IMG/VR virus record: IMGVR_UViG_3300032288_003550
Span: 1 to 25,551 of that record
DNA from: a virus
Length of the DNA stretch: 25,551 nucleotides
Reading direction: 5' to 3' (one strand)
Positions 569 through 25,180 of the stretch are shown here, one piece after another. The notes under the pieces are model-generated. The model was not told the origin of the DNA. It saw only the letters and a program-made list of their open reading frames with translations, and searched no databases. The position numbers and the translations under genes were made by a program. Every line of letters starts with the position of its first letter. Position 1 is the first letter of the stretch.

Positions 569-597
569 TTGGCCCCCTAAATTTACTTTACTATATT
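569..597 (+). promoter_or_regulatory. Two-part promoter P1 (TTGGCCCCC ... TATATT)
   Basis: TTGGCCCCC at 569-577 and TATATT at 592-597, with 21 bases from the first G to the first T of TATATT. The same arrangement recurs at 1117, 1853, 23359 and 25144. TTG and TA-n-n-TT at this spacing fit Bacteroidota housekeeping promoters; the C-rich extension is extra. Expected transcription start is about 603-606, close before the lipoprotein start at 615. Confidence 0.65.
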
Positions 598-614
598 AAC
601 CAAAAATAAAAGTT

Positions 615-851
615 ATGAAAAAATTATTATTACAAAAGTATATTTACTTTTGGCTCTCATTATTTGTTGTGTTATCAATGGCATCGTGTATCGCGCCTTG
701 GAACACAAGACACCAAGCAAGAACCATGAGGAATATTTCCAGACCTCATCATTATCGTGATCGCAATGTATCACCTAATCATCGTGGTGACTATCGTCAC
801 CCAGCAGTTCGTAAACAAACTCGTAAAGCGCTTATACAAAATGGTAATTAG
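615..851 (+). CDS. Small basic lipoprotein
   Basis: 78 residues. The N-terminus is a classic lipoprotein signal: Met-Lys-Lys, a hydrophobic core at about residues 10-24, then S-M-A-S-Cys with Cys25 as the lipidated residue. The mature part is about 53 residues, rich in Arg and His, without a recognisable domain. It would be anchored in a membrane facing the periplasm or the outer surface. Small phage lipoproteins often alter the host envelope, for example in superinfection exclusion, but nothing here shows that directly. The start follows promoter P1 with an A-rich leader and no Shine-Dalgarno. The 3' end overlaps the next small gene by 11 bases, suggesting co-translation. The gene is credible; its function is unknown. 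Confidence 0.75.
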   Translation: MKKLLLQKYIYFWLSLFVVLSMASCIAPWNTRHQARTMRNISRPHHYRDRNVSPNHRGDYRHPAVRKQTRKALIQNGN

Positions 852-954
852 TATTATAATCGCAACAATAATTTCAGTACTTTGGGTACGTGGTATTGAC
901 CACATGAAAAATAACCACCCAGATTACGATGGTAAAGATCTATTTAACGAATAA
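841..954 (+). CDS. 37-residue single-pass membrane peptide
   Basis: The ATG at 841 lies inside the end of the lipoprotein gene in another frame. The product has a hydrophobic helix at about residues 2-16 and a polar tail with N-H-P-D-Y-D-G and a C-terminal L-F-N-E. That tail resembles short conserved membrane peptides I associate with T4-like marine phages, though I cannot name a family. A longer frame from 757 exists, but it would overlap the lipoprotein almost entirely and add an unneeded N-terminus, so I prefer 841. Probably an inner-membrane micropeptide; role unknown. Confidence 0.6.
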   Translation: MVISIIIATIISVLWVRGIDHMKNNHPDYDGKDLFNE

Positions 955-966
955 AAAACAAACTAT

Positions 967-1068
967 ATGTCAAAAAACAGCCCAAAACAAGCAACCGAGG
1001 CCATCAAAGAATGGTTACAATGGATGAAATCCAAAACTACTAAAAATGTTACACCATATCGTAGATAG
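967..1068 (+). CDS. 33-residue hypothetical peptide
   Basis: ATG at 967, stop TAG at 1066-1068. The product is a short basic peptide with a predicted amphipathic helix (A-T-E-A-I-K-E-W-L-Q-W-M-K) followed by a Lys/Arg-rich tail. It lies 12 bases after the previous gene with an A-rich leader like those of other genes here. No family recognised. Its position in a tight run of small genes and its position just before a hairpin terminator favour a real gene, but the short length keeps confidence moderate. Confidence 0.5.
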   Translation: MSKNSPKQATEAIKEWLQWMKSKTTKNVTPYRR

Positions 1069-1098
1069 GTATATACGTATGGAGGTAGTGTAGTGGTG

Positions 1099-1126
1099 AG
1101 GACTTCATGTTAATGCTTGGAGTCCT
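1099..1126 (+). terminator. Hairpin (terminator) overlapping promoter P2
   Basis: AGGACTTCA (1099-1107) pairs with TGGAGTCCT (1118-1126): nine pairs including one G-T, with a 10-base loop. It lies 30 bases after the 33-residue gene. Its 3' arm is also the upstream box of the following promoter. Confidence 0.55.
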
Positions 1127-1145
1127 TAGATATTTATATTATATT
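1117..1145 (+). promoter_or_regulatory. Two-part promoter P2 (TTGGAGTCC ... TATATT)
   Basis: TTGGAGTCC at 1117-1125 and TATATT at 1140-1145. First G (1119) to first T (1140) is 21 bases, as in the other four copies. The C-rich box is the most diverged of the five. Predicted start near 1152, giving a leader of roughly 35 bases before the lipoprotein at 1189. A TATTTATAT string overlaps at 1131-1139. Confidence 0.55.
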
Positions 1146-1188
1146 AACATATTATTAACCCTTTAAAAATTTAAACCTTAAAAACAAA

Positions 1189-1374
1189 ATGAAAAAATTA
1201 TTTGTTCTATTTGCTTGCGTAGCATTATTTGCCGCTTGTAATTCTGGCGCTACTGAAACTACTTGTACTTCGACTGAAGAAGTTAGTGATTCTACTGCTG
1301 TAGAAATGGTAGCTACATCAACTGAAACTGTTGATGCTAGTACAGCTACTGTAGAAGCTACTGCTACTAAGTAA
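1189..1374 (+). CDS. Small Thr/Ser/Glu-rich lipoprotein
   Basis: 61 residues. The signal peptide M-K-K-L-F-V-L-F-A-C-V-A-L-F-A-A-Cys ends in a lipobox (F-A-A-C) with Cys17 as the lipid attachment site. The mature 44 residues are almost entirely Thr, Ser, Ala, Val and Glu, acidic and low in complexity, as expected for an extended or disordered chain rather than a folded domain. No Bacteroidota surface-export signal is evident after the Cys. The gene is monocistronic in appearance, with promoter P2 upstream and a strong terminator 12 bases downstream, which suggests independent and perhaps high expression. Its likely place is an envelope membrane; host-envelope modification or entry exclusion is a guess only. 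Confidence 0.8.
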   Translation: MKKLFVLFACVALFAACNSGATETTCTSTEEVSDSTAVEMVATSTETVDASTATVEATATK

Positions 1375-1385
1375 TTAGATAAACA

Positions 1386-1412
1386 GGCCTCGTATTTATA
1401 TGCGAGGCTTTT
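1386..1412 (+). terminator. Rho-independent terminator
   Basis: GCCTCG (1387-1392) pairs with CGAGGC (1403-1408), extended inward by three further pairs including a G-T, with a TTAT loop, followed by TTTT at 1409-1412. The clearest terminator in the window; it ends the lipoprotein transcript. Confidence 0.85.
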
Positions 1413-1425
1413 ATCGTGCTTTATT

Positions 1426-1851
1426 ATGAATATCAAAAATATATTTGATGCTTTTAACTCGGAGAACTTTCAAAACGATGACGAGACATCGCTTTTGATG
1501 GATTTTTCCGAGCATCCTTTGTTCTGGATTAGTGGTTTTAATAAAATTATTGATAACCATTTGTTTTTTACTCAATACACTGTTAAAACATTTAAGAATA
1601 TTTCCCCTGATGTTAATATCGATGAATTAGAGAAAGCTGGAGAGGAATTAATGTTTAGGAAAGCTTGGGATTATATCAAGAGTATTGATTTAAATAAAAA
1701 TTTTCATGTGGAGTGTCTAAAGAGTAAGGCAAGTAGGGATTTTATGTATAATCTACAAATCAGTATACAATTTTTTGAGTTACATGAGGAATATGAGAAA
1801 TGTGCTCTTTTGAAAAACATTGAAACAACAATTGAAGAGTTTTTGAAATAA
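1426..1851 (+). CDS. Conserved-looking hypothetical phage protein
   Basis: 141 residues, acidic and helical, with no signal peptide or membrane segment. Features: an acidic N-terminus (D-F-S-E-H-P-L-F-W at about 26-34), a central F-R-K-A-W-D-Y-I-K helix at about 77-85, and a C-terminal F-F-E-L-H-E-E-Y-E-K-C-A-L-L-K helix at about 116-130. I recognise no domain; the C-terminal pattern resembles uncharacterised proteins of T4-like phages. It starts 14 bases after a terminator, so transcription must come from readthrough or an unseen promoter. Its stop codon lies two bases before promoter P3. It is probably cytoplasmic; function unknown. Confidence 0.75.
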   Translation: MNIKNIFDAFNSENFQNDDETSLLMDFSEHPLFWISGFNKIIDNHLFFTQYTVKTFKNISPDVNIDELEKAGEELMFRKAWDYIKSIDLNKNFHVECLKSKASRDFMYNLQISIQFFELHEEYEKCALLKNIETTIEEFLK

Positions 1852-1852
1852 C

Positions 1853-1881
1853 TTGGCCCCCAGAATTTTTGTATGTATATT
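1853..1881 (+). promoter_or_regulatory. Two-part promoter P3 (TTGGCCCCC ... TATATT)
   Basis: TTGGCCCCC at 1853-1861, identical over nine bases to the P1 box, and TATATT at 1876-1881 with the same 21-base offset. The TATATT box lies in the loop of a small inverted repeat (GTATG 1871-1875, CATAC 1885-1889). It would produce a leader of about 90 bases before the gene at 1979. Confidence 0.6.
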
Positions 1882-1978
1882 TTTCATACGGGGTTCAAGA
1901 GAAAGATGGATATGAGAGAAAGGGATGAATGAATAAACGGGTGATGGGGTAAGAAATAAACTATATAAATATAAACTT
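1882..1978 (+). promoter_or_regulatory. Purine-rich leader with T4-type late promoter TATAAATA
   Basis: The stretch 1891-1960 is rich in G and A and contains several short ATG-started frames that close quickly (for example 1906-1932, eight codons). An exact copy of the T4 late promoter core, TATAAATA, lies at 1964-1971. A start about seven bases further on would coincide with the ATG at 1979. So the downstream genes may have one early/middle and one late start. The motif is AT-only in an AT-rich genome, so chance occurrence is possible. Confidence 0.4.
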
Positions 1979-2179
1979 ATGAGAAACAGAGAAGCATCTC
2001 TTAGAAAAGTCGATCAAATCGATTCATCTTTGAAAAAATTAATTTCATTCCTTAGAAGGGGTGATGAACAATCTTTTAATAGCACATTAGAAGATATGAA
2101 TGAACAAATTGATCAACTTAGAACCTATATTGAATCAGAACGTATCGATGGATATGAAATGAATCCTTCAGCACAATAA
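1979..2179 (+). CDS. 66-residue coiled-coil hypothetical protein
   Basis: A short, highly charged, helical protein. Heptad-like hydrophobic spacing runs through V-D-Q-I-D-S-S-L-K-K-L-I-S-F-L and again through L-E-D-M-N-E-Q-I-D-Q-L-R-T-Y-I, so two helices or a helical hairpin are likely. No catalytic motif, membrane segment or Cys. It ends two bases before the HD-domain gene and is surely co-transcribed with it. It may act as a partner or regulator of that enzyme, judged from position only. Confidence 0.65.
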   Translation: MRNREASLRKVDQIDSSLKKLISFLRRGDEQSFNSTLEDMNEQIDQLRTYIESERIDGYEMNPSAQ

Positions 2180-2181
2180 TT

Positions 2182-2964
2182 ATGAAATTAACAGAAGAAC
2201 AAATCAAATCTAATTGGGATGAGTTCATTGGTTATATTGATACTTACATCTCAGAACCACGTAAAAACGCTTTAAAGGCGTTTTATGAAAAATATGCGGA
2301 GCGTATAGCACTTATGCCGGCCGCTCATAAAAAAGAATATCATAACGCTTTTCCCGGCGGATATATCGAACACGTTAACCGTGTTATTCAAGCTGCTCTT
2401 AAATTTGAAGAATTATGGTCTGAATTTGGTGTGACTAAAAATTACACTATTGAAGAATTAGTATTCTCAGCTATGAATCACGATTTAGGTAAAATGGGTG
2501 ATGAAAACCATGAAGCATATATTCCTCAAACAGACCAATGGCGTAAAGATAAATTAGGTGAAGATTATAAATTTAATGATAAACTTGAATTTATGTCAGT
2601 TCCAGATCGTGGTTTATATTTACTTACTCAGCATGGTATTTTATATACTAAAAATGAAATGTTAGCTATTAAATTACATGATGGTTTATATGATGATGCT
2701 AACAAGCCATATTTAATGTCTTACATGCCAGAAACTAAACCACGTACATCTTTGGTTTATATTCTACATCAGGCTGATTTAATGGCTGCGCGTATTGAAT
2801 TTGAGCGTGAATGGTTTCCAAAACTATATGGAGATAATTTGGAGAATAAAGGAAAGGGTAGTACATTGAAATCAGATAAAAAAACTAACATTAAAACCAA
2901 AGCATTAGGTAATATTAAAAGCGAAGGTTTAAAAAATGTAATGCAAGATTTTTTTAACGACTAA
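2182..2964 (+). CDS. HD-domain phosphohydrolase
   Basis: 260 residues. The HD superfamily signature is visible: His64 in G-G-Y-I-E-H, the paired His100-Asp101 in N-H-D-L-G-K, a further His166-Asp167 in L-H-D-G, and a distal Asp199 in H-Q-A-D. These are the usual ligands of one or two divalent metals in enzymes that hydrolyse phosphate esters of nucleotides. The catalytic region spans roughly residues 55-215; a Lys-rich low-complexity segment (about 221-245) and a short C-terminal helix follow. Substrate cannot be read from sequence: dNTP, cyclic or alarmone nucleotides, or nucleoside monophosphates are all possible. It may serve nucleotide metabolism or counter a nucleotide-signalling defence, both inferences. 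A terminator hairpin follows. Confidence 0.8.
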   Translation: MKLTEEQIKSNWDEFIGYIDTYISEPRKNALKAFYEKYAERIALMPAAHKKEYHNAFPGGYIEHVNRVIQAALKFEELWSEFGVTKNYTIEELVFSAMNHDLGKMGDENHEAYIPQTDQWRKDKLGEDYKFNDKLEFMSVPDRGLYLLTQHGILYTKNEMLAIKLHDGLYDDANKPYLMSYMPETKPRTSLVYILHQADLMAARIEFEREWFPKLYGDNLENKGKGSTLKSDKKTNIKTKALGNIKSEGLKNVMQDFFND

Positions 2965-2983
2965 TAAAAAATAAAAATAAATA

Positions 2984-3013
2984 AAGGTTGTAATCTCATG
3001 GTTACAGCCTTTT
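2984..3013 (+). terminator. Rho-independent terminator after the HD gene
   Basis: AAGGTTGTAA (2984-2993) pairs with TTACAGCCTT (3002-3011): ten pairs with one G-T, an 8-base loop and TTTT at 3010-3013. Confidence 0.8.
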
Positions 3014-3028
3014 CTTATACTAAAAACT

Positions 3029-3298
3029 ATGACAATTATTATTTCAATATTATCAGTATTAATAATTTTATTATTTTATACTAATTATAATTTATTAAAG
3101 AAAAATGAGAAATGTGAAGATATAATTACCACATACGAAAGGTATATGGTCAATTTATCTAATACAATTAAAGATGCAGATAAACGTTTAAAAGAAGTTG
3201 ATAGAAAAGGTTCATTCGAGAGTGATGATGAAGTAGGATTCTTTTTTATAACGCTTAAAGAAATCCAAGATCAACTTAATAATTTCAAAGTTAATTAA
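3029..3298 (+). CDS. Membrane-anchored coiled-coil peptide
   Basis: 89 residues. An N-terminal hydrophobic helix (about residues 2-19) is followed by a Lys-rich cytoplasm-type boundary and a long charged helix (about 24-62). The C-terminal part, S-D-D-E-V-G-F-F-F-I-T-L-K-E-I-Q, resembles a motif of uncharacterised proteins in T4-like phages. One transmembrane segment with a soluble helical tail suggests an inner-membrane anchor protein. The stop overlaps the start of the sigma-factor gene (TAATG at 3296-3300), so the two are translationally coupled. No promoter was recognised in the 15 bases between terminator and start. Function unknown. Confidence 0.7.
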   Translation: MTIIISILSVLIILLFYTNYNLLKKNEKCEDIITTYERYMVNLSNTIKDADKRLKEVDRKGSFESDDEVGFFFITLKEIQDQLNNFKVN

Positions 3299-3999
3299 TG
3301 AGCAAAAACTATTTTACCCAAGACACCGAAAATGCTATTGTAGCATATAATTTATGTACTGACCCAGAGGAACGTAGTAGAATTTATAATGATAGAATTC
3401 ATTATGCTTTTTTCAAACTTACTCAAAATATTATTCATACATTTAAATTTTATTATACTGAGGTGGAGAATATTGAAGATTTACAACATGAAATTATCAC
3501 ATTCCTACTCAGTAAAATGTATTTATTTGATCCCTCTAAAGGTGCTAAAGCATATTCATATTTTGGAACTATTGTTAAACGTTGGTTAATTTTATATAAT
3601 GAAAAAAATTATAAAAAACGTGTTAATTCAGTACCAGCCTCTATTCTAGAGGAAGATAATGGACATACATACGTTATTGAGGAGAATAATTCACCAAGTG
3701 ATAAATTAGGACATAATGATAAAATATCTTTATTTACAGATTTATATGTTGATCATTGTACTACAAATATATACAAATTATTTCCTAAAGAAGGTGATGC
3801 TAAGATAGCAGATGCTATACTTGAATTATTTAGAAAGCGAGATGATTTAGAGGTGTTTAATAAAAAAGCACTATACATTTATATTAGAGAAATGGTAGAT
3901 GCAAAAACTCCTAAAATTACTAAGATAGCTGATAAACTTTACGATATTTATAGAAATAGTTATGTATTCTATTTAGAAAATGGATATATAAAATTTTAA
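3298..3999 (+). CDS. gp55-like RNA polymerase sigma factor for late transcription
   Basis: 233 residues, somewhat longer than T4 gp55. Residues about 57-107 look like sigma region 2: a helix with N-I-E-D-L-Q-H-E-I, then F-D-P-S-K-G-A-K-A-Y-S-Y-F-G-T-I-V-K-R-W and a basic N-Y-K-K-R-V. This is the core-binding and promoter -10-recognising region. A C-terminal segment at about 199-220 (K-T-P-K-I-T-K-I-A-D-K-L-Y) could be a helix-turn-helix-like element. In T4, gp55 replaces the host sigma, works with the sliding clamp and gp33, and reads TATAAATA promoters. Position just upstream of the structural block fits. The assignment rests on motif recognition, so very distant sigma types remain possible. 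Confidence 0.7.
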   Translation: MSKNYFTQDTENAIVAYNLCTDPEERSRIYNDRIHYAFFKLTQNIIHTFKFYYTEVENIEDLQHEIITFLLSKMYLFDPSKGAKAYSYFGTIVKRWLILYNEKNYKKRVNSVPASILEEDNGHTYVIEENNSPSDKLGHNDKISLFTDLYVDHCTTNIYKLFPKEGDAKIADAILELFRKRDDLEVFNKKALYIYIREMVDAKTPKITKIADKLYDIYRNSYVFYLENGYIKF

Positions 4000-4006
4000 T
4001 TTTTGG

Positions 4007-4015
4007 TATTTATAA
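4007..4015 (+). promoter_or_regulatory. TATTTATAA motif, candidate late promoter
   Basis: TATTTATAA in the 29-base gap after the sigma gene and 13 bases before the first structural gene. Repeated at 6799, 8559, 19803 and 25130. Its complement contains TATAAATA, the T4 late core, in the opposite direction. Confidence 0.4.
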
Positions 4016-4028
4016 TAAATAAAATGCT

Positions 4029-4394
4029 ATGAGTAGTTTAGAATCCGATATTTTTGGTGATAAAAAGTTAAAAGACTTATTTCAAGAAATTTATCAAAAC
4101 CAAAAGAAAAAAGAAAAACAAATATCTACATTAATTGAAGAATTAAAACCTTTAATTGATGATATTGGTGACGCTACCTTAGTTGTTCCATTAATCAAAG
4201 AATATCTAGAATTAGGTGTTAAAAATGATGAACAACTTATCAAAATGGCCACTATCATCCAGCGTTGTATAGCAAACGATAATAGTGGTGGAGGAGGTGA
4301 AGGTGCATTATTAATTTCTGATGAAGAAAAAGCACAATTGCTAGGTGAAATAAATAAAATTCAAGAAAATTTAGATAAAAATGGCAAAGACTAA
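4029..4394 (+). CDS. Small hypothetical structural-block protein
   Basis: 121 residues, mainly helical and charged. It opens with an acidic D-I-F-G-D-K-K-L-K segment, continues through a Lys/Gln coiled-coil stretch (about 17-45), a hydrophobic helix with D-A-T-L-V-V-P-L-I-K-E-Y-L, a short S-G-G-G-G-E-G flexible linker (about 86-92) and a final charged helix. I recognise the general type from other T4-like genomes next to the baseplate spike gene but cannot give it a T4 number. It could be a hub or assembly protein. Its 3' end overlaps the next gene by 14 bases, which indicates coupling. No catalytic motif. Confidence 0.7.
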   Translation: MSSLESDIFGDKKLKDLFQEIYQNQKKKEKQISTLIEELKPLIDDIGDATLVVPLIKEYLELGVKNDEQLIKMATIIQRCIANDNSGGGGEGALLISDEEKAQLLGEINKIQENLDKNGKD

Positions 4395-5694: not shown

Positions 5695-5697
5695 AAT

Positions 5698-6807
5698 ATG
5701 GCACTTCAAAATGACGCAGAAGATAAATTTATAACTAGTAAAAGTGGAGCAGGAGTAGCAGATACTACATTAGATGCTATATTCATAGCTGGATTAACTA
5801 CTGTAATACCTCTTGATAAACAAAAAGAAAAATTAAAAGCTGGCTTTGGAGAGAAAAAAGTTCTTAAATCATTCAAACATGATGATCCAGTAAATACTAT
5901 AACAACATATATAAAAAATCATCCAGATGTTTATATATTTTTATACAGTGCAGGTTGTGTTCTCTCAAAAGCTGTATCTACAACATCAGGTGTAAATTTA
6001 AATAAAGTATATATTGTTGAACCTTATAGTCCTAGCACAGCTGATAACTCAGTTAAAACTGCTAATCAAAATGGAGTTCCTTTAAAAAATATATTTTTAG
6101 GTCCTGTCGCAGCAAGAGGTAAAGGAATATTATCTGGAACATCAAAAACACCTGATGGATTAAGCCATGGAGAGGCTTTAACACATGCTGCTAAAGAGGC
6201 TGCTAATGCAGCTGCATCAACCCCCCCACCACCTCCATCACCCCCTGCTCCTCAATCTTCTACTCCAACACCAAGTCCATCACCACCCCCTCCTCCTTCA
6301 ACACCATCATCAACAACTTCAACAGAACCTACTAATAATGATGTTAATGGTAAAGAAACAGGAGCTTATGCTAATTTAAGTAATGGATGGTGTATAACAG
6401 TATATAAAGATGGGATTAGAAAAATAACTGTAGTTAGAGATGGAAAAGGAAATTTAATAAGAACTGATTATTATAATAATACTACAGATAAAGATGCTGT
6501 ATCATTTACATTAACTAAATTAAATGATTCAACAGCTGTAACTCCAAATCAAGATCAACCATCTAAAGTTAAATCAACAGAAGTTGCTCCTAATACTCAA
6601 AATAATGTTGAAATTATAAAAACAGATAGTGTTAATGTATTAGAATCTCCTGAAGATAATGATGCTGGAGAATATGTTTATGAAGTACTTTTAGTAGTTA
6701 AAAAAAATGGTAAAACAATTTTAATTAGTGGTGAAGGTAGAGGATTAGATACTGATACTGCTATAAAAAATGCAACCGAGAATGCTAAGAAAAATGCTTA
6801 TTTATAA
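5698..6807 (+). CDS. Virion-associated protein with hydrolase-like N-terminus and proline-rich linker
   Basis: 369 residues in three parts. Residues 1-170 alternate strands and helices: V-Y-I-F-L-Y-S-A-G-C at 78-87, V-Y-I-V-E-P-Y at 104-110, and S-H-G-E-A-L at 156-161. The order Ser84, Glu108, His157 matches an alpha/beta-hydrolase triad, although the canonical first Gly of G-x-S-x-G is absent, so activity is a hypothesis. Residues 175-209 are almost pure Pro/Ser/Thr. Residues 220-369 look like two small beta-rich repeats, the second containing T-I-L-I-S-G-E-G-R-G followed by an Ala/Asn helix. It sits directly after the spike gene, so it may be a hub or tail-tip component and could supply the envelope-degrading function the spike lacks. 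Confidence 0.6.
   Translation: MALQNDAEDKFITSKSGAGVADTTLDAIFIAGLTTVIPLDKQKEKLKAGFGEKKVLKSFKHDDPVNTITTYIKNHPDVYIFLYSAGCVLSKAVSTTSGVNLNKVYIVEPYSPSTADNSVKTANQNGVPLKNIFLGPVAARGKGILSGTSKTPDGLSHGEALTHAAKEAANAAASTPPPPPSPPAPQSSTPTPSPSPPPPPSTPSSTTSTEPTNNDVNGKETGAYANLSNGWCITVYKDGIRKITVVRDGKGNLIRTDYYNNTTDKDAVSFTLTKLNDSTAVTPNQDQPSKVKSTEVAPNTQNNVEIIKTDSVNVLESPEDNDAGEYVYEVLLVVKKNGKTILISGEGRGLDTDTAIKNATENAKKNAYL
6799..6807 (+). promoter_or_regulatory. TATTTATAA motif at a gene junction
   Basis: The motif overlaps the stop codon of the preceding gene (TAA at 6805-6807) and ends six bases before the ATG at 6814. If it is a promoter, transcripts would begin at or next to that ATG. Confidence 0.3.
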
Positions 6808-6813
6808 TTAAAA

Positions 6814-8553: not shown

Positions 8554-8558
8554 TTAAA

Positions 8559-8567
8559 TATTTATAA
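8559..8567 (+). promoter_or_regulatory. TATTTATAA motif before the gp25 cluster
   Basis: The motif fills most of the 17-base gap after the linker protein gene and ends three bases before the ATG at 8571. A start six to seven bases downstream would fall just inside the coding sequence, which argues for another role here or a later start for the transcript that expresses gp25. Confidence 0.3.
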
Positions 8568-8570
8568 TAG

Positions 8571-11199: not shown

Positions 11200-11208
11200 A
11201 ATTAAACT

Positions 11209-12701: not shown

Positions 12702-15700
12702 TGGAAGAAACAATAGCTAACATACAGGTCTTAGATCCGAATACTCTTCAATTACAAAATTATTCTACTGAAGACGAAGCTTTAATATCTAGTTTTACTC
12801 AAGATATTTCTTTTGATCCAAATGAAGATTATATTGAATATTATATTTTAGATTTAAATAAAAATATTCTTTATGGAGACGATGTATATACTAATTTTAG
12901 TATATTAAATAATTTAGTAAGTATTAATCCTCAAAAAGATCTAGAAGAAGCAGGATATGTTGAAGGTTCGTATTATACTATTTATAATTTTTTAAAAAGA
13001 AGATTATCTTCATCTCCTAATGATACTTTATTTATTCAAGAAATTAGTTCTGATAGGACTGAGTTAAGATTAAATACTAATCAAATTAATAATATTGATA
13101 TAACTGATTTAACAAATCAATTAGCTAATGAAATAGCATTAAATACTGGAACATATTTAGATTTTTATTTAAATTTTGGAGATAATCAATTAGTAATTGC
13201 TAATAATATTTTATTAGACAATCTTGATCCTAATGATCCCACAGTTCTAGTTAAATTATATGAACCATTACCTCAAAATTTTACAATAAATTCTCAATGT
13301 TGGGTAGTTGAACAAGTAGCTGAATCTCAAGCATATCAAATTGATTTACAAACTATTTTTAATTTTGAAGTAGAACCAAATTATATAGCAGGCCCAAATT
13401 TTAATCTAGATCTCCAAGATCAAATTAATAATTCAACACCGTATTATAACGAAACATATCTAACCCAAAACTATTCAGCATTAGGATCAGGTAGTTTATT
13501 ATATCAATTAAACAGTTTATTAGCAGAAAAAGGAATTGAAATAAATATAGATTACTCAGATTATTCTCAATTTTGCCATTTTTCCTCAGCCGAAACTCGT
13601 TTAGAAAATTTTTATTATAAATTATCTTTAATTGAGCAATATGCTATTAATGCTGGATTATCTAATACTAGTTTACCTCAAAATGGTTTTACCTCAGGTA
13701 GTCAATTGATTTGGTTAAATAAAATGAATGATATTATAACTAATTTTGATGGTTATGAATATTATCTTTTTTATGAATCAGGTAGTACATCATGGCCAAA
13801 AATTAATTCAGAATATCCATATATAAATGCATCAGTCAATGATTTAAATGCTCTAAATTGGTTGCAAGGACAAATATTATCAGCATCATATTTTGATTTA
13901 GAAAATAAAGATGCTTTAACTTATTCAATTCCTGATTATTTAATAGATGATTCAAATAATGACCAATATAAATTATTTACTCAAATGGTTGGTCAACATT
14001 TTGATAATATCTGGGTTTATTTAAAAGACATTACTAATAAATTTGATAATGATAATAGATTAAATTATGGTATTTCTAAAGATATAGTAGCACAAGCTAT
14101 TCGTGATTTAGGAGTTAAAATATACCAAAATAATTTTTCTACAAATGATTTATATTCAGCTTTATTAGGTATAACTACAACTGGTGATTTATACAATTTA
14201 CCTTATACTACAGGTTCATTACCTACACCTACAGGATATGAATACGTTGATACTTACATAACAGCATCATTAACTTCTTCTATAGAACCAGTAGACGATA
14301 TTAATAAAGAAATTTATAAACGTATATATCATAATCTTCCAATGTTACTTAAGAAAAAAGGAACAGCAGAAGGTTTAAGAATGTTAGTAAATATTTATGG
14401 TATTCCTGATACTATTGTTCGTATAAATGAATTTGGTGGTAAATCATATGAAAATCAAGCATGGGATAATTTTGTAGATCAATTTAATTATGCATTTACT
14501 TCTCCTGGAACTGGATATATAAGAACACTTCTCCCAAATACTTATTTTAATTCTAATGATTTACAATCAATTGAATTTAGATTTAAAACTTTTGGTATTC
14601 CTAATTTTGCTCAATCTAGCCAATCTATAGCTTATATTCCTAATGTTTTTCATCTTGGATTACAATATACTGGAAGTAGATATACCTCAGGTAGTTATAA
14701 TGGCTCTATTCCTGATCCTTATAATATATACGGAACATTAGTTTATAGAGATTTAGTAGATACAACTAAATCTGCAAGTGTATATTTACCATTTTTCGAC
14801 GGAGGATGGTGGTCTATTTTATTAACTAAAGATAATTCTAATGATGAATTAAAATTATATGCTAAGAATAATATATATGATGGCTATGATGGAAGTCAAT
14901 TAGGATTCCAAGCTTCTGATAGTTTTATTGGAGCAGAAAATTGGGTAACAGGATCCGCAACTAATACTCTATATCTTAGTCAACAACAACCCGTAAGTCT
15001 TTCTATTCTAGGAAAAACATACACCCGATTTTCAGGTTCATTCCAAGAATTAAGATTTTATCATGATGTATTAAAAGAGAAAAAATTTGATGATTATGTA
15101 ATGAATCCTTATTCTATTGAAGGAAATTCTATAGAAGAAGCAAATGATGCTTTCAATCAATTATTTTTTAGAGCACCTTTAGGTACTGTATTAGATAATG
15201 ATGTAAATCAAACATCTAGAATCTCAATTCATCCATCAATTACTCAAATTCCAATTACTCAATCTTTTGGATCAACTAGTAATTATGATTTAAATGGTAC
15301 TTTTACATTTGAACCTAATACTGAAATATTGTACCAAAATCAATTTGTAGCAGGTATTAAAAATTCTGTATCTGAGAAAATTAGAATAGTTAATATGATT
15401 TTACCTCCAGGTAATACTTTATCTCCTTATATTTCAATTCAACAAAATTCTCCTGTTAATGAAACATTTACAAAAGATGTAAATTATGTTGAAGCAGCTT
15501 TTTCACCTCAAGATGAAGTTAACGATGATATTATATCTCAACTTGGATATTTCAATATAGGTTCGTATATTGGAGATCCAGGACAATTAATATCAGGCTC
15601 AAATAATTATTATCCTGATTTTAATAAATTAAGAGATAATTATTTCTCTAAATATACTCATAATTATGATTTAAATGATTATATAAGACTTATAAAATTT

Positions 15701-19782: not shown

Positions 19783-19802
19783 ATAAAAATATAATTTAAT
19801 AA

Positions 19803-19811
19803 TATTTATAA
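19803..19811 (+). promoter_or_regulatory. TATTTATAA motif, candidate late promoter
   Basis: Lies in the 47-base gap between the 1298-residue gene and the next structural gene, the largest gap within the structural block, and ends 18 bases before the ATG at 19830. Of the structural-block copies this has the best promoter-to-start geometry. Confidence 0.45.
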
Positions 19812-19829
19812 CAAAATACTTAATAACAA

Positions 19830-20480
19830 ATGGGATATTTAAATAACGCCGTTATAACAGTAGACGCGATTTTAACAACAAAAGGAAGACAATTATTAGC
19901 AAAAAATGATGGTTCATTTAGAATTACTCAATTTGCTTTATCAGATGATGAAGTAGATTATACAATGTATAATCCTAATCATCCATCAGGTTCAGCATAT
20001 TATGGTGAAGCAATTCTTAATATGCCTTTATTAGAAGCATTTCCTGAGGAAACACAAATTATGAAATATAAATTAGTAACACTTCCTCGTGGTACTGCTA
20101 AAATGCCTGTTCTTGATTTGGGTTATCCATCTATTATAATTAAACAAGGTGCTTCACTTGCTATTACACCTCAAACATTAAATTATTTTGGTGGAAATAC
20201 TTATGAAACAGCTGGTTATACATTTACTATTTCTGATGTTCGTTTAATGAATACATTTGAAGGAGTAGGTATTAATACAACCCAAGCACAAGCTTTAAAT
20301 AGTACAACTACATTAGGAACTAGTGTTTCTAAAACAGTTGTTGGTACTACTCTTAATTTAAGAGCAACCACTGTTAACACATTGTTTGGTTCAAATCTAG
20401 AAATATATGCTACATTAACTGTTCAAGGTAGAGATAGTGGAGCTCGTTTAAATATTCCCGTAACTGTAAAAAAAGTATAA
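19830..20480 (+). CDS. Conserved phage structural protein
   Basis: 216 residues. The N-terminal half has a well-defined pattern: a hydrophobic T-V-D-A-I-L-T-T-K-G-R-Q-L-L-A (about 10-24), F-R-I-T-Q-F-A-L-S-D-D-E-V-D-Y-T (30-45) and N-P-N-H-P-S-G-S-A-Y-Y-G-E-A-I (48-62). I associate this with a protein widespread in tail regions of T4-like marine and Bacteroidota phages, without known function. The C-terminal half is a beta-rich domain with alternating Val/Thr strands. Gene composition is slightly less AT-biased than the preceding adhesin gene. It may have its own transcript start at 19803. Likely a virion component near the tail. Confidence 0.75.
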   Translation: MGYLNNAVITVDAILTTKGRQLLAKNDGSFRITQFALSDDEVDYTMYNPNHPSGSAYYGEAILNMPLLEAFPEETQIMKYKLVTLPRGTAKMPVLDLGYPSIIIKQGASLAITPQTLNYFGGNTYETAGYTFTISDVRLMNTFEGVGINTTQAQALNSTTTLGTSVSKTVVGTTLNLRATTVNTLFGSNLEIYATLTVQGRDSGARLNIPVTVKKV

Positions 20481-20504
20481 TATAAAAATAATTAATATAA
20501 AAAT

Positions 20505-21506
20505 ATGTCATTTAATCGTTTATCCGCAGAAGATTTTGTAGTAAGCTCAGACTCTATAACCGGTCCATTATGGTCAGCAGGTTCACCAACTTTAGTTCAA
20601 TTTTATACCTCATCAGTTCAAGAACTTGGATCTTCTGGATTATTTTATTTAAATGTTTATCAAACAGCTTCAAATAATTCAGCAGCAGAAATTCAGTTTG
20701 CTATAGCATATGGTAACAAAAATGGGTATGGAAGTACTTATTATAATCCTGCAGTTCCTGGAGCATCACCCACAAGAACAACTTATGGTCAATATAGAAA
20801 CTTAGTATTGGGTGATGAATATTCTGATTTTATTTTTGGTGGTACAATATCAAATGATTTTTGGGTAATATCAGTTGATAGAAATCATTATAAAGAATCT
20901 TTACTCCCAGGTACAATGACATTAATATTATCAGGAAGTGGTGGTTCTTTATTTTTAACAGATGATAGTAATGCTAGTAGTACTATTCTTTTTAATGATG
21001 CTGGTAGAGTATTCCAATTGGTTAGTGGATCAGCAGGAACTGTTAATACTACTAATCCTAATGGATATAGTGTAGCTAGTGGTTCATATGGTTGGTTTTT
21101 ACCAGATATTGGAACAATTTTATTGCATCCCGCAGCTATTAGTTCTTCAATTCAATTAAATTCAAACCCAACTGTTAACTCAGATGGTCAAAATTATCAA
21201 CTTTTATTTAATGCTTTAAATTTAGGAGGACAATTTACCGCAAATAGTCAAGAAACAATTACAGCAGATTATATCTTTGTAAGAGCAAGAAACGCAGAAT
21301 TTAATTACTCAGAAAATCCAAGTTATATTTCGGGTAGTACAGGTGAAGTTATATTTAATAATTTTATTAATAATCCTCAAACCTTCCCTACTACAATTGG
21401 ATTATATAATGATACAAACGAACTTTTAGCTGTCGCTAAATTATCAAGACCTTTATTAAAAGATTTTACAAAAGAAGCATTAGTAAGAGTTAAATTAGAT
21501 TTCTAA
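20505..21506 (+). CDS. Structural protein sharing a C-terminal domain with its downstream neighbour
   Basis: 333 residues. It starts with F-N-R-L-S-A-E-D-F-V-V-S-S-D-S, an exposed-looking N-terminus, then beta-rich segments with many Ser/Gly/Asn. Repeated aromatic positions (G-Y-G-S-T-Y-Y-N-P, D-F-W-V-I-S-V-D-R-N-H-Y) suggest a globular head. The last 72 residues, from R-N-A-E-F-N-Y through I-S-G-S-T-G-E and T-T-I-G-L-Y-N to V-K-L-D-F, align with the end of the next protein. The shared tail suggests duplication of an anchoring or trimerisation module. Located after the conserved 216-residue protein; probable virion surface component. No enzyme motif. Confidence 0.7.
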   Translation: MSFNRLSAEDFVVSSDSITGPLWSAGSPTLVQFYTSSVQELGSSGLFYLNVYQTASNNSAAEIQFAIAYGNKNGYGSTYYNPAVPGASPTRTTYGQYRNLVLGDEYSDFIFGGTISNDFWVISVDRNHYKESLLPGTMTLILSGSGGSLFLTDDSNASSTILFNDAGRVFQLVSGSAGTVNTTNPNGYSVASGSYGWFLPDIGTILLHPAAISSSIQLNSNPTVNSDGQNYQLLFNALNLGGQFTANSQETITADYIFVRARNAEFNYSENPSYISGSTGEVIFNNFINNPQTFPTTIGLYNDTNELLAVAKLSRPLLKDFTKEALVRVKLDF

Positions 21507-21511
21507 AATGA

Positions 21512-22912
21512 ATGGGCGCTTACAAACAACTTCTTACTTCGGATGTAATTACTACTCCTCTTAGGGTACATAAAGATTTTACCTTTCAAGGTAGTTCATC
21601 ACTTAATACAGCTTCTATAGGTAGATTTATAGGTCAAAATATATATCAATTTGATTTTGAACCTGGTAAAGATCCATATACTGGAAATTATACTATTGTA
21701 ACCCCAGGAACTACATCATCAGCACAATTTAATTTTTTAAATCTTCATGCTGAAGCAGTAAGTGTAGGTTCTAGTTCATTTATAATAAATAATACCGCTT
21801 TTATTATAACTGGGAGTAATAATTTATTACCCAATGGATATAATGCTATATTTATCCCATCAGGATCTACAGGAAATGGTACCGGAATTAATATAGTAAA
21901 TCATATTAATAATAGTGCTTCTTTATTTTCAGGAACATACAACATAACATCTTCAAGATCTTCACCATTAATAAATTTATATACTACAAATACTGGATAT
22001 ATAAACAATTATAATTATGTAACCTCAGGTAGTACAACTTCATATTTTACAGGTGGTACAAATGATATAATTTCAGGATCATACCAATATCAAAGATTAG
22101 TTTATGATTCTATAAAACAATTATATTATTCAAATTATTTATCTTCTTCACATGGAGATAGAATAAACAGACCTATTCTAATACCAGGATCGGATCCAAG
22201 TGGAGATAGATATATTGGTTCTTCTAGTAATCCTTCATATGATAATTTTTTACAAACAACATTACCTTATGAAAGATATTTTCCTACATATACAGGCAGT
22301 ATAATTGGGGTATTATCTATTCCAATGACATTATTTGGAGAATATATTAATCCACATTCATTCAAAATGAGTTTTGATGGATCAGATTTTTATGATGATG
22401 GTGAAGGTAATTTAATATCTGGTTCTCAAATAATGGGTAATATTATATATACTCATGGTATTGTAGCATTGGTTGGAAATCAATATTTAGCAAATTTTGC
22501 TGCTGCTCAATCTGTCTCTACAACTAATGTAGGATCAGTATATGCAAATGCAATATATGGAACTTCATATGTTTATGGTGTAGCACCAAATGTTCAAACT
22601 ACAACATTGGGTTTTGCTGTTACAAATAATTTTACTTGTTCATTTTCAAGTTCATATACAATTTTTGAAAAACAATATAAATGTACTATTAGGGAAAATG
22701 AATTTAATTTTACTTTAAACCCAAGCACCATATCAGGTAGCACTGAAGGTACATTATATGGATACGTAACAGAATCATATTTTTCACCTTATATTACAAC
22801 AGTAGGTTTATATGATGAACAACAAAATTTATTAGCAATAGGTAAATTAGCACAACCAGTTCCTGGTTCACCAACAACAGATACAACGATATTGATTAAT
22901 TTAGATATGTAA
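21512..22912 (+). CDS. Structural protein, partial paralogue of the upstream gene product
   Basis: 466 residues, Ser/Thr/Asn/Gly-rich and beta-type. Its C-terminal 75 residues, from R-E-N-E-F-N-F through I-S-G-S-T-E-G and T-T-V-G-L-Y-D to I-N-L-D-M, match those of the preceding protein, including a shared A-x-A/I-x-K-L-x-x-P strand. The N-terminal 390 residues differ, so the pair share an end but carry different heads. A second ATG four bases upstream (21508) is out of frame and closes quickly, so 21512 is used. The stop overlaps the next start (TAATG at 22910-22914). Likely a virion peripheral or tail-tip protein. Confidence 0.7.
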   Translation: MGAYKQLLTSDVITTPLRVHKDFTFQGSSSLNTASIGRFIGQNIYQFDFEPGKDPYTGNYTIVTPGTTSSAQFNFLNLHAEAVSVGSSSFIINNTAFIITGSNNLLPNGYNAIFIPSGSTGNGTGINIVNHINNSASLFSGTYNITSSRSSPLINLYTTNTGYINNYNYVTSGSTTSYFTGGTNDIISGSYQYQRLVYDSIKQLYYSNYLSSSHGDRINRPILIPGSDPSGDRYIGSSSNPSYDNFLQTTLPYERYFPTYTGSIIGVLSIPMTLFGEYINPHSFKMSFDGSDFYDDGEGNLISGSQIMGNIIYTHGIVALVGNQYLANFAAAQSVSTTNVGSVYANAIYGTSYVYGVAPNVQTTTLGFAVTNNFTCSFSSSYTIFEKQYKCTIRENEFNFTLNPSTISGSTEGTLYGYVTESYFSPYITTVGLYDEQQNLLAIGKLAQPVPGSPTTDTTILINLDM

Positions 22913-23352
22913 TGTGGTTATACGAAAATAAGGTTATAGAAAAAATAGAAGATTTTCCTGAAAATACATTTGGTTTTATTTATATGACTACTCATATGCC
23001 AAGTGGAATATCTTATATAGGTAAAAAATCACTTTACCATAACATCAAGAAAAAATTTACTAAAAAAGAATTAGCAGAGCAATCAGGTCCTGGGCGTAAA
23101 TCGGCCACTAAAACCGTTTTAAAGGAATCTGATTGGAAAACTTACTACGGTTCTGCTAAACCAATATTAGGTTTATTAAAGGAAAATAAACACGAAGAAT
23201 TTAAACGTGAGATAATAACAACTGCTACTAGTAAAAAATTACTAACATATTATGAGTGTAAATATTTATTCCATTATGGAGTACTAGAACACCCAGTTGA
23301 ATATTTCAACGATAATATTTTAGGTAAATTTTTCGCTAAAGATTTTTTATAG
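22912..23352 (+). CDS. GIY-YIG-like nuclease family protein
   Basis: 146 residues. G-F-I-Y at 21-24 and S-Y-I-G-K-K at 34-39 match the two halves of the GIY-YIG motif at suitable spacing. A following W-K-T-Y-Y-G-S (75-81), F-K-R-E-I (97-101) and Y-Y-E-C-K-Y (113-118, with Glu115 as possible metal ligand) agree with phage relatives. No C-terminal DNA-binding domain of a homing enzyme follows, so it is more like a free-standing nuclease than a typical Seg homing endonuclease. It lies at the boundary between structural and replication genes and is translationally coupled to a structural gene, an odd partner. It could act in genome processing or host DNA degradation, neither shown. Confidence 0.65.
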   Translation: MWLYENKVIEKIEDFPENTFGFIYMTTHMPSGISYIGKKSLYHNIKKKFTKKELAEQSGPGRKSATKTVLKESDWKTYYGSAKPILGLLKENKHEEFKREIITTATSKKLLTYYECKYLFHYGVLEHPVEYFNDNILGKFFAKDFL

Positions 23353-23358
23353 TAAGGC

Positions 23359-23387
23359 TAGGCCTCCAAAAATATATTTTATATATT
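23359..23387 (+). promoter_or_regulatory. Two-part promoter P4 (TAGGCCTCC ... TATATT)
   Basis: TAGGCCTCC at 23359-23367 and TATATT at 23382-23387 keep the exact 21-base offset. The gap between the nuclease and primase genes is only 41 bases and the element fills most of it. Predicted transcription start falls at about the ATG of the primase gene (23394), implying a leaderless or nearly leaderless message. Confidence 0.6.
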
Positions 23388-23393
23388 GAAGTT

Positions 23394-24326
23394 ATGACTA
23401 ATAATGCTCTAGTATTCTTAATTGATTCTGTTTTAGGTAAAGGTAAACCAACATCCAAAGGTAATAGAGCTTACCATTGTCCTGAATGTAAACACCATAA
23501 ATTAAAATTAGAAGTTAATCTAGAGGAAACATCACCCCATTTCCAATCATATCAGTGTTGGGTGTGTGGTTTTAAAGGTAAAAAATTAACTACTTTATTT
23601 AAAAGGATAGAAGTTGATTCTAGTAAAATTAGTCAATTAAAACTATTAGTTAAAACTGATGGTAAACAAGTTGAAATAACTGATAATAAGAAAGCAGAAC
23701 TACCTAAAGAATTCATACCATTAATCAATCCACCATTAAACAGTTTAACCGCTAAAAAAGCTATATCATATCTTAAAAATAGAGGTATTACTAAAGAAGA
23801 TATAATCAAGTATAATATAGGTTATTGTGAATTCGGATTATTTTCTAATATGATTGTTATTCCTTCGTACGACACGAATGGAAATCTTAATTATTTTACC
23901 GCAAGAAACTTCGATAAAAACTCGTCTATTAAATACAAAAATCCTGACGTAACTAGAGATATCATTGGTTTAGAGCATTTTATTAATTGGAATGTACCTA
24001 TTATTTTATGTGAAGGTATGTTTGATGCTATTGCTATTAAACGTAATGCTATACCATTATTAGGTAAAACAATACAGAAGAGTTTAATGAAACGTATTAT
24101 TAACTCCTCAGTTGAAAAAATATATATTGCTCTAGACAAAGACGCTATTAAACAAGCATTAAATTTTTGCGAAACACTAATGAACGAAGGTAAAGAGGTT
24201 TATTTAGTGAATCTTGAAGATAAAGATCCTAGTGAAATGGGATTTGAAAAATTCACTAATCTAATTCAAAACACTTTACCATTAACATTCTCGAATTTAC
24301 TCGAGAAAAAACTGCAAACATTATGA
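23394..24326 (+). CDS. 61: DNA primase, gp61/DnaG-like
   Basis: 310 residues, close to T4 gp61. A zinc-binding domain begins with Y-H-C-P-E-C (Cys29, Cys32) and ends with C-W-V-C-G (Cys55, Cys58). A linker leads to a primase core: Y-L-K-N-R-G-I-T (126-133), M-I-V-I-P-S-Y (153-159) and a TOPRIM fold with L-C-E-G-M-F-D-A (Glu207, 205-212) and I-A-L-D-K-D-A (Asp248, Asp250). These acidic residues bind the metal used to join ribonucleotides. It would synthesise primers for the lagging strand with a replicative helicase that is not in this window. Promoter P4 lies just upstream; the 3' end overlaps the nuclease gene by four bases (ATGA). Confidence 0.85.
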   Translation: MTNNALVFLIDSVLGKGKPTSKGNRAYHCPECKHHKLKLEVNLEETSPHFQSYQCWVCGFKGKKLTTLFKRIEVDSSKISQLKLLVKTDGKQVEITDNKKAELPKEFIPLINPPLNSLTAKKAISYLKNRGITKEDIIKYNIGYCEFGLFSNMIVIPSYDTNGNLNYFTARNFDKNSSIKYKNPDVTRDIIGLEHFINWNVPIILCEGMFDAIAIKRNAIPLLGKTIQKSLMKRIINSSVEKIYIALDKDAIKQALNFCETLMNEGKEVYLVNLEDKDPSEMGFEKFTNLIQNTLPLTFSNLLEKKLQTL

Positions 24327-25111
24327 TAGAAAAAGGACAGTCAATACATAAGAAAAGTATTAAAAGAACACTTGAATTTGATGGTGAAGGACAACAAGTA
24401 AATTTTTTAGATAATCGATTTTATAAACGAAATGACTTATATTATCCATCAGTTACAAGTATATTACAATATTTTCCTAAAGGTAAATTTTTTGAAAATT
24501 GGCTTAAAGATGTAGGACATAACTCAGATGTTATAGTTAAAAAAGCAGCCGATGAAGGTACTCAAACCCATAGTTTAATTGAGCGTTATTTAACAGGTGA
24601 AAAAATTAATTGGTTAGATGAAAAAGGACATGCTATATGTTCTTTATCTGTTTGGCAAATGTTACTTAAATTTGTTGAATTTTGGGAAACTGAAAAACCT
24701 GAATTAATTGAAAGCGAAATTCATTTATATTCAGACACTCATAAAATTGCTGGTACTTGTGATTTAGTAGTTAGAATGAGAGATGAATTATGGATTTTAG
24801 ATATTAAAACATCTAATAGTGTTCATACAAGTTATGATTTACAAATGGCTGCGTACACAGTATGTTGGAATGAAACATTTGAAGAAAAAGTAACTAAAAA
24901 TGGTATCATTTGGTTAAAATCATCTAAACAAAAAGCTGATAAAAAAGGTGATAAAATACAAGGTAAAGGATGGGAAGTAATTTCATCATCTAGAACAATA
25001 GAGGAAAATTGGGACTTATTTAACAAAGTATATGATTTATATAAATTGGAAAACCCCAACTCCGAACCATCATTTAATAAATTTCCAGTATCGGTTCAAT
25101 TAAATTCATGA
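24323..25111 (+). CDS. PD-(D/E)XK nuclease, RecB/Cas4-type
   Basis: 262 residues. The order of motifs matches RecB-family exonucleases: G-T-Q-T-H-S-L-I-E (His83), an acidic E-S-E-I-H-L region (131-135), G-T-C-D-L-V-V (Asp147), L-D-I-K-T-S (Asp160, Lys162) and Q-M-A-A-Y (Gln174, Tyr178). Asp147, Asp160 and Lys162 are the expected catalytic set with metal. No iron-sulphur Cys cluster as in Cas4 or AddB is evident. Start ATG at 24323 overlaps the primase stop in the ATGA arrangement, so they are co-expressed. A role in end processing, recombination or host DNA breakdown is likely; the choice cannot be made from sequence. Confidence 0.8.
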   Translation: MIEKGQSIHKKSIKRTLEFDGEGQQVNFLDNRFYKRNDLYYPSVTSILQYFPKGKFFENWLKDVGHNSDVIVKKAADEGTQTHSLIERYLTGEKINWLDEKGHAICSLSVWQMLLKFVEFWETEKPELIESEIHLYSDTHKIAGTCDLVVRMRDELWILDIKTSNSVHTSYDLQMAAYTVCWNETFEEKVTKNGIIWLKSSKQKADKKGDKIQGKGWEVISSSRTIEENWDLFNKVYDLYKLENPNSEPSFNKFPVSVQLNS

Positions 25112-25129
25112 TTTCCCGTAATTTTTAAA

Positions 25130-25138
25130 TATTTATAA
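25130..25138 (+). promoter_or_regulatory. TATTTATAA motif upstream of promoter P5
   Basis: Lies in the 69-base gap between nuclease and P-loop genes, before a hairpin and the two-part promoter. It is the only exact intergenic copy not directly in front of a structural gene. Confidence 0.3.
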
Positions 25139-25139
25139 G

Positions 25140-25164
25140 GGACTAGGCTTTCGAAGTCTTTTTA
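25140..25164 (+). terminator. Short hairpin with T-tract
   Basis: GGACT (25140-25144) pairs with AGTCT (25155-25159) with one G-T at the base, followed by Ts to 25163. It is short and overlaps the upstream box of promoter P5, so it may attenuate readthrough from the nuclease gene. Confidence 0.4.
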
Positions 25165-25172
25165 TTTATATT
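25144..25172 (+). promoter_or_regulatory. Two-part promoter P5 (TAGGCTTTC ... TATATT)
   Basis: TAGGCTTTC at 25144-25152 and TATATT at 25167-25172, again 21 bases from first G to TATATT. ATG at 25181 follows after eight bases, so the start of transcription should be next to the start codon. Confidence 0.55.
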
Positions 25173-25180
25173 TAAAATAT

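What the first reader, a model, noticed from the sequence alone, without database searches (positions are those of the whole stretch)
569..25172. Five copies of a two-part promoter with exactly conserved spacing
At 569, 1117, 1853, 23359 and 25144 a box of the form T-T/A-GG-C-pyrimidines-C is followed by TATATT, with exactly 21 bases from the first G to the first T in every copy. The base seven after the first G is C in all five and base ten is A in all five. TTG and TA-n-n-TT at this spacing match known Bacteroidota housekeeping promoters, but the C-rich block directly after TTG is not part of that consensus and may be the site of a phage activator, as the MotA box is in T4. All five precede non-structural genes.
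Basis: partly seen in the sequence, partly recalled or inferred. Interest (0 to 1): 0.7.

Follow-up and report, generated by a model that had tools for sequence, protein, structure and literature searches.

The report
Phage-specific two-part promoter class
Five identically spaced start signals in this phage fragment belong to a promoter family that occurs dozens of times in each related phage of Flavobacterium-type bacteria but not in the bacteria themselves, so these phages appear to use their own signal, distinct from the host's, to switch on early and DNA-replication genes before a second signal turns on the virion genes.

Summary
TWGG-N19-TATATT occurs at the five stated places, and relatives show it is a genuine promoter class: 27-49 coding-strand copies in each of six large relative contigs, against 1-4 on the other strand and mostly 0-5 at other spacings; 74-94% are intergenic although only 4-9% of the DNA is. 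Positions outside the search pattern are conserved too: box TWGG(C/A)TTnCAAAA from -35, TATATTTA at -12 to -5, A at +1. Eight Bacteroidota genomes show no enrichment. The phage -7 element ends in A where the host's ends in a nearly invariant G, and host-type promoters are practically absent from the phages. A second, -10-only class, (A)TATTTATA, precedes virion genes. The promoter at 1853 heads the operon of a phage sigma-like protein (ORF 3298-3999), whose next gene carries TATTTATA. So this is the pre-late promoter class of an immuto-like phage family. I favour host RNA polymerase reading it, alone or with a virion-borne factor. No transcript data exist.

The parts
569..597 (+). Promoter 1: box TTGGCCCCCTAA (569-580), TATATT 592-597, predicted +1 near 604; before ORF 615-851 (small, membrane/lipoprotein-like)
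1117..1145 (+). Promoter 2: TTGGAGTCCTTA, TATATT 1140-1145; overlaps late-type ATATTTATA (1130-1138); before ORF 1189-1374 (lipoprotein-like). Likely orthologous sites in G001 (66183) and G003 (64392) keep both
1853..1881 (+). Promoter 3: TTGGCCCCCAGA, TATATT 1876-1881; heads the operon 1979 / 2182 (HD phosphohydrolase) / 3029 / 3298 (sigma-like). A TTGG promoter of this class is conserved at this operon in relatives
23359..23387 (+). Promoter 4: TAGGCCTCCAAA, TATATT 23382-23387, predicted +1 at the A of the primase ATG (23394); box and spacing kept upstream of primase in most of 80 relative loci
25144..25172 (+). Promoter 5: TAGGCTTTCGAA, TATATT 25167-25172, predicted +1 near 25179; before kinase-like ORF 25181 (Zeta_toxin/AAA match). 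Box lies in a short hairpin followed by a T run
3298..3999 (+). Sigma-factor-like protein: sigma region 2 domain in residues 5-111, unassigned helical C-terminal domain; candidate sigma for the TATTTATA class
   Evidence: Pfam Sigma70_r2 in 30 of 30 relatives, best 8.4e-5; model pLDDT 74; 4x8k sigmaA domain 2, Z 8.4, rmsd 2.4 over 96
4007..4014 (+). Late-type promoter TATTTATA before ORF 4029, directly after the sigma-like gene; exact TATTTATA after this gene in 66 of 78 relative loci
8559..8566 (+). Late-type promoter ATATTTATAAT before baseplate-region ORF 8571
19803..19810 (+). Late-type promoter ATATTTATAAC before ORF 19830 (conserved, in the virion gene block)
6799..6806 (+). Possible late-type promoter TATTTATAATTAA at the end of ORF 5698-6807, before ORF 6814
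25130..25137 (+). Late-type promoter ATATTTATAAG, 14 bases upstream of promoter 5: gene 25181 appears to have both classes

Best explanation
The five sites are copies of the pre-late (early and replication-gene) promoter class of an immuto-like family of T4-type phages of Bacteroidota. The class is RTWGG(C/A)TTnCAAAAT - spacer - (C)nTATATTTA with G-33 fixed 21 bases before T-12 and an A at +1. The bacterium's own RNA polymerase transcribes from it. TTG/TAG at -35 to -33 sits where the host -33 element sits and TATATT where the host -7 element sits, while the extra bases (-32 to -23) and A-5 make it a phage class distinct from host promoters. One copy (1853) drives the operon that makes a phage sigma-like protein, which is then inferred to switch RNA polymerase to a second, -10-only class, (A)TATTTATA, in front of virion genes. 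Shown here by sequence: the class, its spacing, its conservation, its absence from hosts, the second class, the operon order, and the sigma region 2 fold (predicted). Inferred: that these are transcription starts, the timing, the reading by host polymerase, and the role of the sigma-like protein.
For: Spacing and strand: in the isolate immuto, TTG-N20-TATATT 39 forward against 3 reverse, 0-4 forward at every other spacing; in six relatives TWGG-N19-TATATT 27-49 forward, 1-4 reverse, mostly 0-5 forward at other spacings with a few of 8-9. Intergenic: 74-94% of copies in 3.6-9.5% of the DNA, p from 1e-20 to 1e-50. Bases not in the search pattern carry 5.0-9.2 bits in the box, T-6 A-5, and A at +1 in 79% of 275 sites. 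Not host: 17 hits against 15 reversed-pattern controls in eight Bacteroidota genomes of about 39 Mb. Flavobacterium promoters are TTG-N18-20-TAnnTTTG, 28 forward/5 reverse, with no excess of TAnnTTTA. Phages: TTG-N18-20-TAnnTTTG 0 or 1 per genome, TATATTTA 18-50 forward against 1-14 reverse; intergenic gaps with neither class hold a TAhhTTTG in 4 of 119. Late class: TATTTATA is the top or among the top three intergenic 8-mers in every group; in immuto 14 of 24 intergenic copies lie in the virion block against 4 of 31 for the TTG class, p = 0.0005. Operon logic; 35 of 50 loci keep a TWGG-type promoter upstream of the sigma-like gene (loose pattern; about 30 of them in the orthologous position), and 66 of 78 have exact TATTTATA after it.
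Against: No transcript 5' ends or infection time course were available for any of these phages, so 'early' and 'late' rest on gene content and order. The host of the window's phage is not known; only immuto has a known host. In immuto the box is plain TTG (TTGC, TTGT or TTGG), so the extended box is not universal in the family. A at -5 where the host has G, and A at -34, speak against unmodified host sigma being an easy reader. The box (about 16 bases) is longer than sigma region 4 normally contacts, which leaves room for a second protein. ORF boundaries in contigs are mechanical.
Confidence: 0.58

Rival explanations
1. Sigma appropriation: a phage DNA-binding activator binds the -35 to -23 box and redirects host polymerase, as MotA with AsiA does at T4 middle promoters.
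For: Box longer and better conserved than any host -33 element; host -33 motif is weak in F. johnsoniae (PMC6847099); host polymerase should dislike A-5; core GGCTT resembles MotA box TGCTT and lies one base outside the T4 range of 12 +/- 1 from the -10 (PMC2988021). TAGG in the small-ORF cluster and TTGG elsewhere suggests two sub-classes (regions chosen after looking).
Against: No MotA domain in seven phage records. No other promoter class from which an activator could be made first, so it would have to arrive with the virion or come from a few unrecognised promoters. Spacing is rigid, whereas MotA tolerates box changes and +/- 1.
Confidence: 0.27
2. The phage sigma-like protein (ORF 3298-3999) itself reads the TWGG/TATATT promoters and feeds its own operon; another factor reads TATTTATA.
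For: It has a sigma region 2 domain and a C-terminal helical domain; phage sigmas can read two-part promoters, e.g. 7-11 gp47 (PMC8948821).
Against: Its own operon is headed by a TWGG promoter in most relatives, so first synthesis would need another start. The C-terminal domain has no clear sigma 4 match (Z 3.8 to sigma H among unrelated folds), and Sigma70_r4 was not found.
Confidence: 0.1
3. Ordinary host-type sigma A promoters with no phage-specific character.
For: Same geometry: TTG-N20-TAnnTT lies within the host spacing of 18-20.
Against: Host -5 G absent (93% A), TAG instead of TTG in many, extended box with 5-9 bits at positions outside the search pattern, no host enrichment.
Confidence: 0.03
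4. The box is the 5' arm of intrinsic terminators or another RNA hairpin, not a promoter element.
For: About 9% of sites (29 of 319) carry a terminator-like hairpin across the box, against about 3 expected; site 25144 is one.
Against: The other ~90% form no such hairpin; -26 is A in most sites, which breaks TTGG/CCAA pairing.
Confidence: 0.02

Closest known systems
Bacteroidota primary sigma (sigma ABfr) promoters, TTTG/TTG -33 and TAHHTTTG -7
   Same: Position of TTG and TAnnTT, spacer within the host range, start about 12 bases after the first T
   Different: A instead of the nearly invariant G at -5, fixed TATATT, A at -34 in many, fixed 20-base spacer, strong extended box to -23
T4 middle promoters (MotA box, AsiA, sigma appropriation)
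   Same: Phage-specific box centred near -30 over a host-like -10; serves replication genes; GCTT core
   Different: Keeps the host TTG-like start of the box, rigid spacing one base outside the T4 range, no MotA found, also heads the presumed earliest gene cluster
T4 early promoters
   Same: Host-geometry promoters with additional conserved positions, used before any phage protein is made (proposed here)
   Different: T4 early promoters are excellent host consensus matches (PMC2988021); these depart from host consensus at -5 and -34
T4 late promoters and gp55
   Same: The second class here, (A)TATTTATA, is -10-only and sits before virion genes; a phage protein with a sigma region 2 fold is encoded
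   Different: Sequence is TATTTATA, not TATAAATA; ORF 3298 shows no detectable sequence relation to T4 gp55
phiEco32-like phage sigma factors and their promoters
   Same: Phage sigma with its own late promoter class on host core polymerase
   Different: Different motifs; the role here is inferred only

Membership tests
Bacteroidota sigma A promoter | -7 element TAHHTTTG with near-invariant G-5 | tested here: not met
   A-5 in 93% of 275 sites; TWGG-N19-TATATTTG 0-2 per genome; host definition from PMC6847099
Bacteroidota sigma A promoter | TTG at about -33 with 18-20 base spacer | tested here: met
   All copies have a 20-base spacer; TTG in some, TAG in most sites of several contigs, so met for geometry and only partly for sequence
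Bacteroidota sigma A promoter | Recognised by host holoenzyme | not testable with these tools
   No biochemistry available
T4-type middle promoter | MotA box (a/t)3TGCTTtA 12 +/- 1 bases before the -10 | tested here: not met
   Box is TWGG(C/A)TTnCA; aligned on GCTT it ends 14 bases before the -10, with rigid spacing (PMC2988021)
T4-type middle promoter | Phage encodes MotA | tested here: inconclusive
   PF09114 no match in 7 records; a diverged or analogous protein could be missed
T4-type middle promoter | Phage encodes AsiA | not tested
   No AsiA search was run
T4-type late promoter (for the TATTTATA class) | TATA box without a -35 element, before virion genes | tested here: met
   Logo of 199 sites shows nothing conserved near -35; enriched in the virion block of immuto
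T4-type late promoter (for the TATTTATA class) | Consensus TATAAATA | tested here: not met
   Coding-strand consensus is (A)TATTTATAA; the T4 consensus TATAAATA is from my own knowledge
Phage-encoded sigma factor (ORF 3298) | Sigma region 2 domain | tested here: met
   Sigma70_r2 in 30 of 30 members, best 8.4e-5 but below the curated cut-off; predicted fold matches sigma domain 2, rmsd 2.4-2.9 over 93-96 residues, Z 8.4-9.1 (helical folds can score in this range by chance)
Phage-encoded sigma factor (ORF 3298) | Sigma region 4 domain | tested here: inconclusive
   C-terminal model: weak sigma H and sigma 28 matches (Z 3.8, 3.1) among unrelated folds
T4 gp55 | Sequence homology to gp55 | tested here: inconclusive
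   hhalign of a shallow profile against single T4 gp55: no alignment of note

The most novel reading that the evidence does not exclude
These Bacteroidota phages use a promoter class that unmodified host polymerase reads poorly, so a virion-delivered or otherwise pre-positioned phage factor, unrelated to MotA or AsiA, retargets host polymerase to the TWGGCTTnC box from the first minutes of infection; a phage sigma made from that class then runs the late genes.
Probability: 0.3. Interest if true: 0.8.

Novelty: new variant of a known kind. Interest (0 to 1): 0.6.

Why it matters
It gives a genome-wide promoter map, with predicted start sites, for a group of large phages of Bacteroidota that is common in freshwater metagenomes and in which I found no described transcription programme (library searches only). 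It makes a specific question testable: does the unusual Bacteroidota polymerase accept promoters lacking the G-5 it otherwise almost always uses, or do these phages remodel it? The promoters could also serve as Flavobacterium expression tools.

Tried and rejected
Chance spacing: rejected by relatives. A C-rich block as the conserved feature: rejected; consensus is TWGG(C/A)TTnC. A host element: rejected; two look-alike hits in Flavobacterium genomes lie inside a coding gene. A general hairpin: rejected except for about 9% of sites. MotA, Sigma70_r4: not found. A phage RNA polymerase among ten large or unknown immuto proteins: no Pfam match, an incomplete test. Wider relatives (Microcystis phage Mel-JY01, a 484 kb uncultured phage) and T4: no enrichment of the class. 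hhalign of ORF 3298 with T4 gp55: nothing. My first pattern had the C and A one position off and found only two sites; corrected. Paper searches found no description of promoters in immuto-like phages.
Full report
Observation. The pattern TWGGN4CN2AN11TATATT has five matches in the window, all on the + strand, at the stated places. Shuffles give 0.04 on average, but the pattern was chosen after the fact, so relatives were used as the test. The window is a whole 25,551-base IMG/VR record. It holds T4-type baseplate genes, a primase, an exonuclease and a kinase-like gene.

Relatives. The primase found 80 viral loci and, among phage records, Flavobacterium phage immuto (160 kb, host Flavobacterium sp. 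LMO8, primase 45% identical). Upstream of the primase, most loci keep a TTGG or TAGG box and a TATATT-like box at the same spacing while the bases between vary.

Spacing and position. In immuto TTG-N20-TATATT occurs 39 times forward and 3 reverse, with 0 to 4 forward at any other spacing from 14 to 26; 30 of the 39 are intergenic, though intergenic DNA is 4.6% of the genome. In six large relative contigs TWGG-N19-TATATT occurs 27 to 49 times forward and 1 to 4 reverse; other spacings give mostly 0 to 5, with 8 or 9 in two cases. Between 74% and 94% of copies lie in the 3.6-9.5% of DNA that is intergenic.

Anatomy. Positions that were not part of the search pattern are conserved: C or A at -31, T-30, T-29, C-27, A/T-rich -26 to -22, C-14 in some, T-6, A-5, and A at +1 in 79% (G 8%) of 275 sites. 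The box carries 5.0 to 9.2 bits beyond TWGG. In four contigs TAGG dominates in a cluster of small ORFs and TTGG elsewhere (67:10 against 15:52; regions chosen after inspection).

Not a host element. Eight Bacteroidota genomes give 17 matches to the full pattern against 15 to the reversed control. In 0.76 Mb of a Flavobacterium genome, promoters are TTG-N18-20-TAnnTTTG (28 forward, 5 reverse), with no excess of TAnnTTTA. This agrees with F. johnsoniae data, where T-12 A-11 T-8 T-7 T-6 G-5 are nearly invariant and the -33 motif is weak (PMC6847099). The phages hold 0 or 1 TTG-N18/19/20-TAnnTTTG each but 18 to 50 intergenic TATATTTA on the coding strand. Of 119 intergenic gaps with neither phage class, 4 hold TAhhTTTG. 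T4 and two distant relatives lack the class.

A second class. After masking the first class, TATTTATA is the top or among the top three intergenic 8-mers in every group of relatives. Its logo is ATATTTATAnnAAA with nothing near -35. In immuto 14 of 24 intergenic copies lie in the virion block against 4 of 31 for the TTG class (p = 0.0005). In the window it stands before ORFs 4029, 8571, 19830, 25181 and possibly 6814.

Link between the classes. Promoter 1853 heads an operon ending in ORF 3298-3999. That protein matches sigma region 2 in 30 of 30 relatives (best 8.4e-5, below the curated cut-off), and its predicted residues 5-111 superpose on sigma domain 2 with rmsd 2.4-2.9 over 93-96 residues. 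The C-terminal domain stays unassigned. A TWGG-type promoter is found upstream of this gene in 35 of 50 testable loci with a loose pattern, about 30 of them at the orthologous distance, and exact TATTTATA follows the gene in 66 of 78. Hence the sigma-like protein is made from the first class and is placed to serve the second. This is inference from gene order.

Who reads the first class. By elimination it should work before any phage protein is made: there is no third enriched class and no host-type promoter. That favours host polymerase as it stands or with a virion-borne factor. Against simple host reading stand A-5, A-34 in many copies, and a box longer than a sigma 4 contact. A MotA-like mechanism (PMC2988021) is not excluded; no MotA was found, and AsiA was not searched for. 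I put host polymerase reading at 0.58 and a newly made activator at 0.27.

Fused terminator-promoters. About 9% of sites (29 of 319 against about 3 expected) place the box in the 5' arm of a terminator-like hairpin whose T run forms the spacer, so one 35-base module may end one transcript and start the next.

Limits. No transcript data; host of the window's phage unknown; contigs may be incomplete; ORFs in contigs are mechanical; the extended box is weak in immuto.

Noticed in passing
window 2986-3014: Terminator hairpin (AAGGTTGTAAnnnnnnTTACAGCCTTTT) between the HD phosphohydrolase gene and ORF 3029, upstream of the sigma-like gene, with no obvious promoter after it. A hairpin is kept with compensatory changes in seven of eight sequences looked at: it may delay sigma synthesis by limiting read-through.
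   Followed up: partly
window 1886-1975: Purine-rich leader after promoter 1853 (ACGGGGTTCAAGAGAAAG...ACGGGTGATGGGGTAAGAAATAAAC) with a conserved TACGGG(T) start and an ACGGGGATAAG-like end in several relatives; function unknown.
   Followed up: no
relatives G001-G007, immuto: Terminators fused into promoters, e.g. GGCTTGGATTTCCAAGCCTTTTTTCTTATATT: TTGG in the stem, T run in the spacer, TATATT directly after.
   Followed up: partly
window 23382-23394 and 25167-25181: Predicted starts for the primase and the kinase-like gene fall 0 to 2 bases from the ATG, so these mRNAs may be nearly leaderless; primase upstream regions in many relatives look the same.
   Followed up: no
window 2-268: Truncated ORF with repeated RGRPVnxxSxRQ motifs, resembling AT-hook-like or DNA-binding repeats.
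   Followed up: no
window 15543-15571: TTGGATATTTCAATATAGGTTCGTATATT inside a virion gene; the same segment matches in G001, G003 and G010, probably through protein conservation.
   Followed up: no
window 6034, - strand: Only minus-strand matrix hit of note (TAGGACTATAAGG...TATACTTTA, score 15.1), antisense inside ORF 5698-6807.
   Followed up: no
immuto 67-76 kb (L087): A series of small ORFs, many with TTG-N20-TATATTTAGGTATCAATAATTAAAA, i.e. the transcribed start is conserved too.
   Followed up: no
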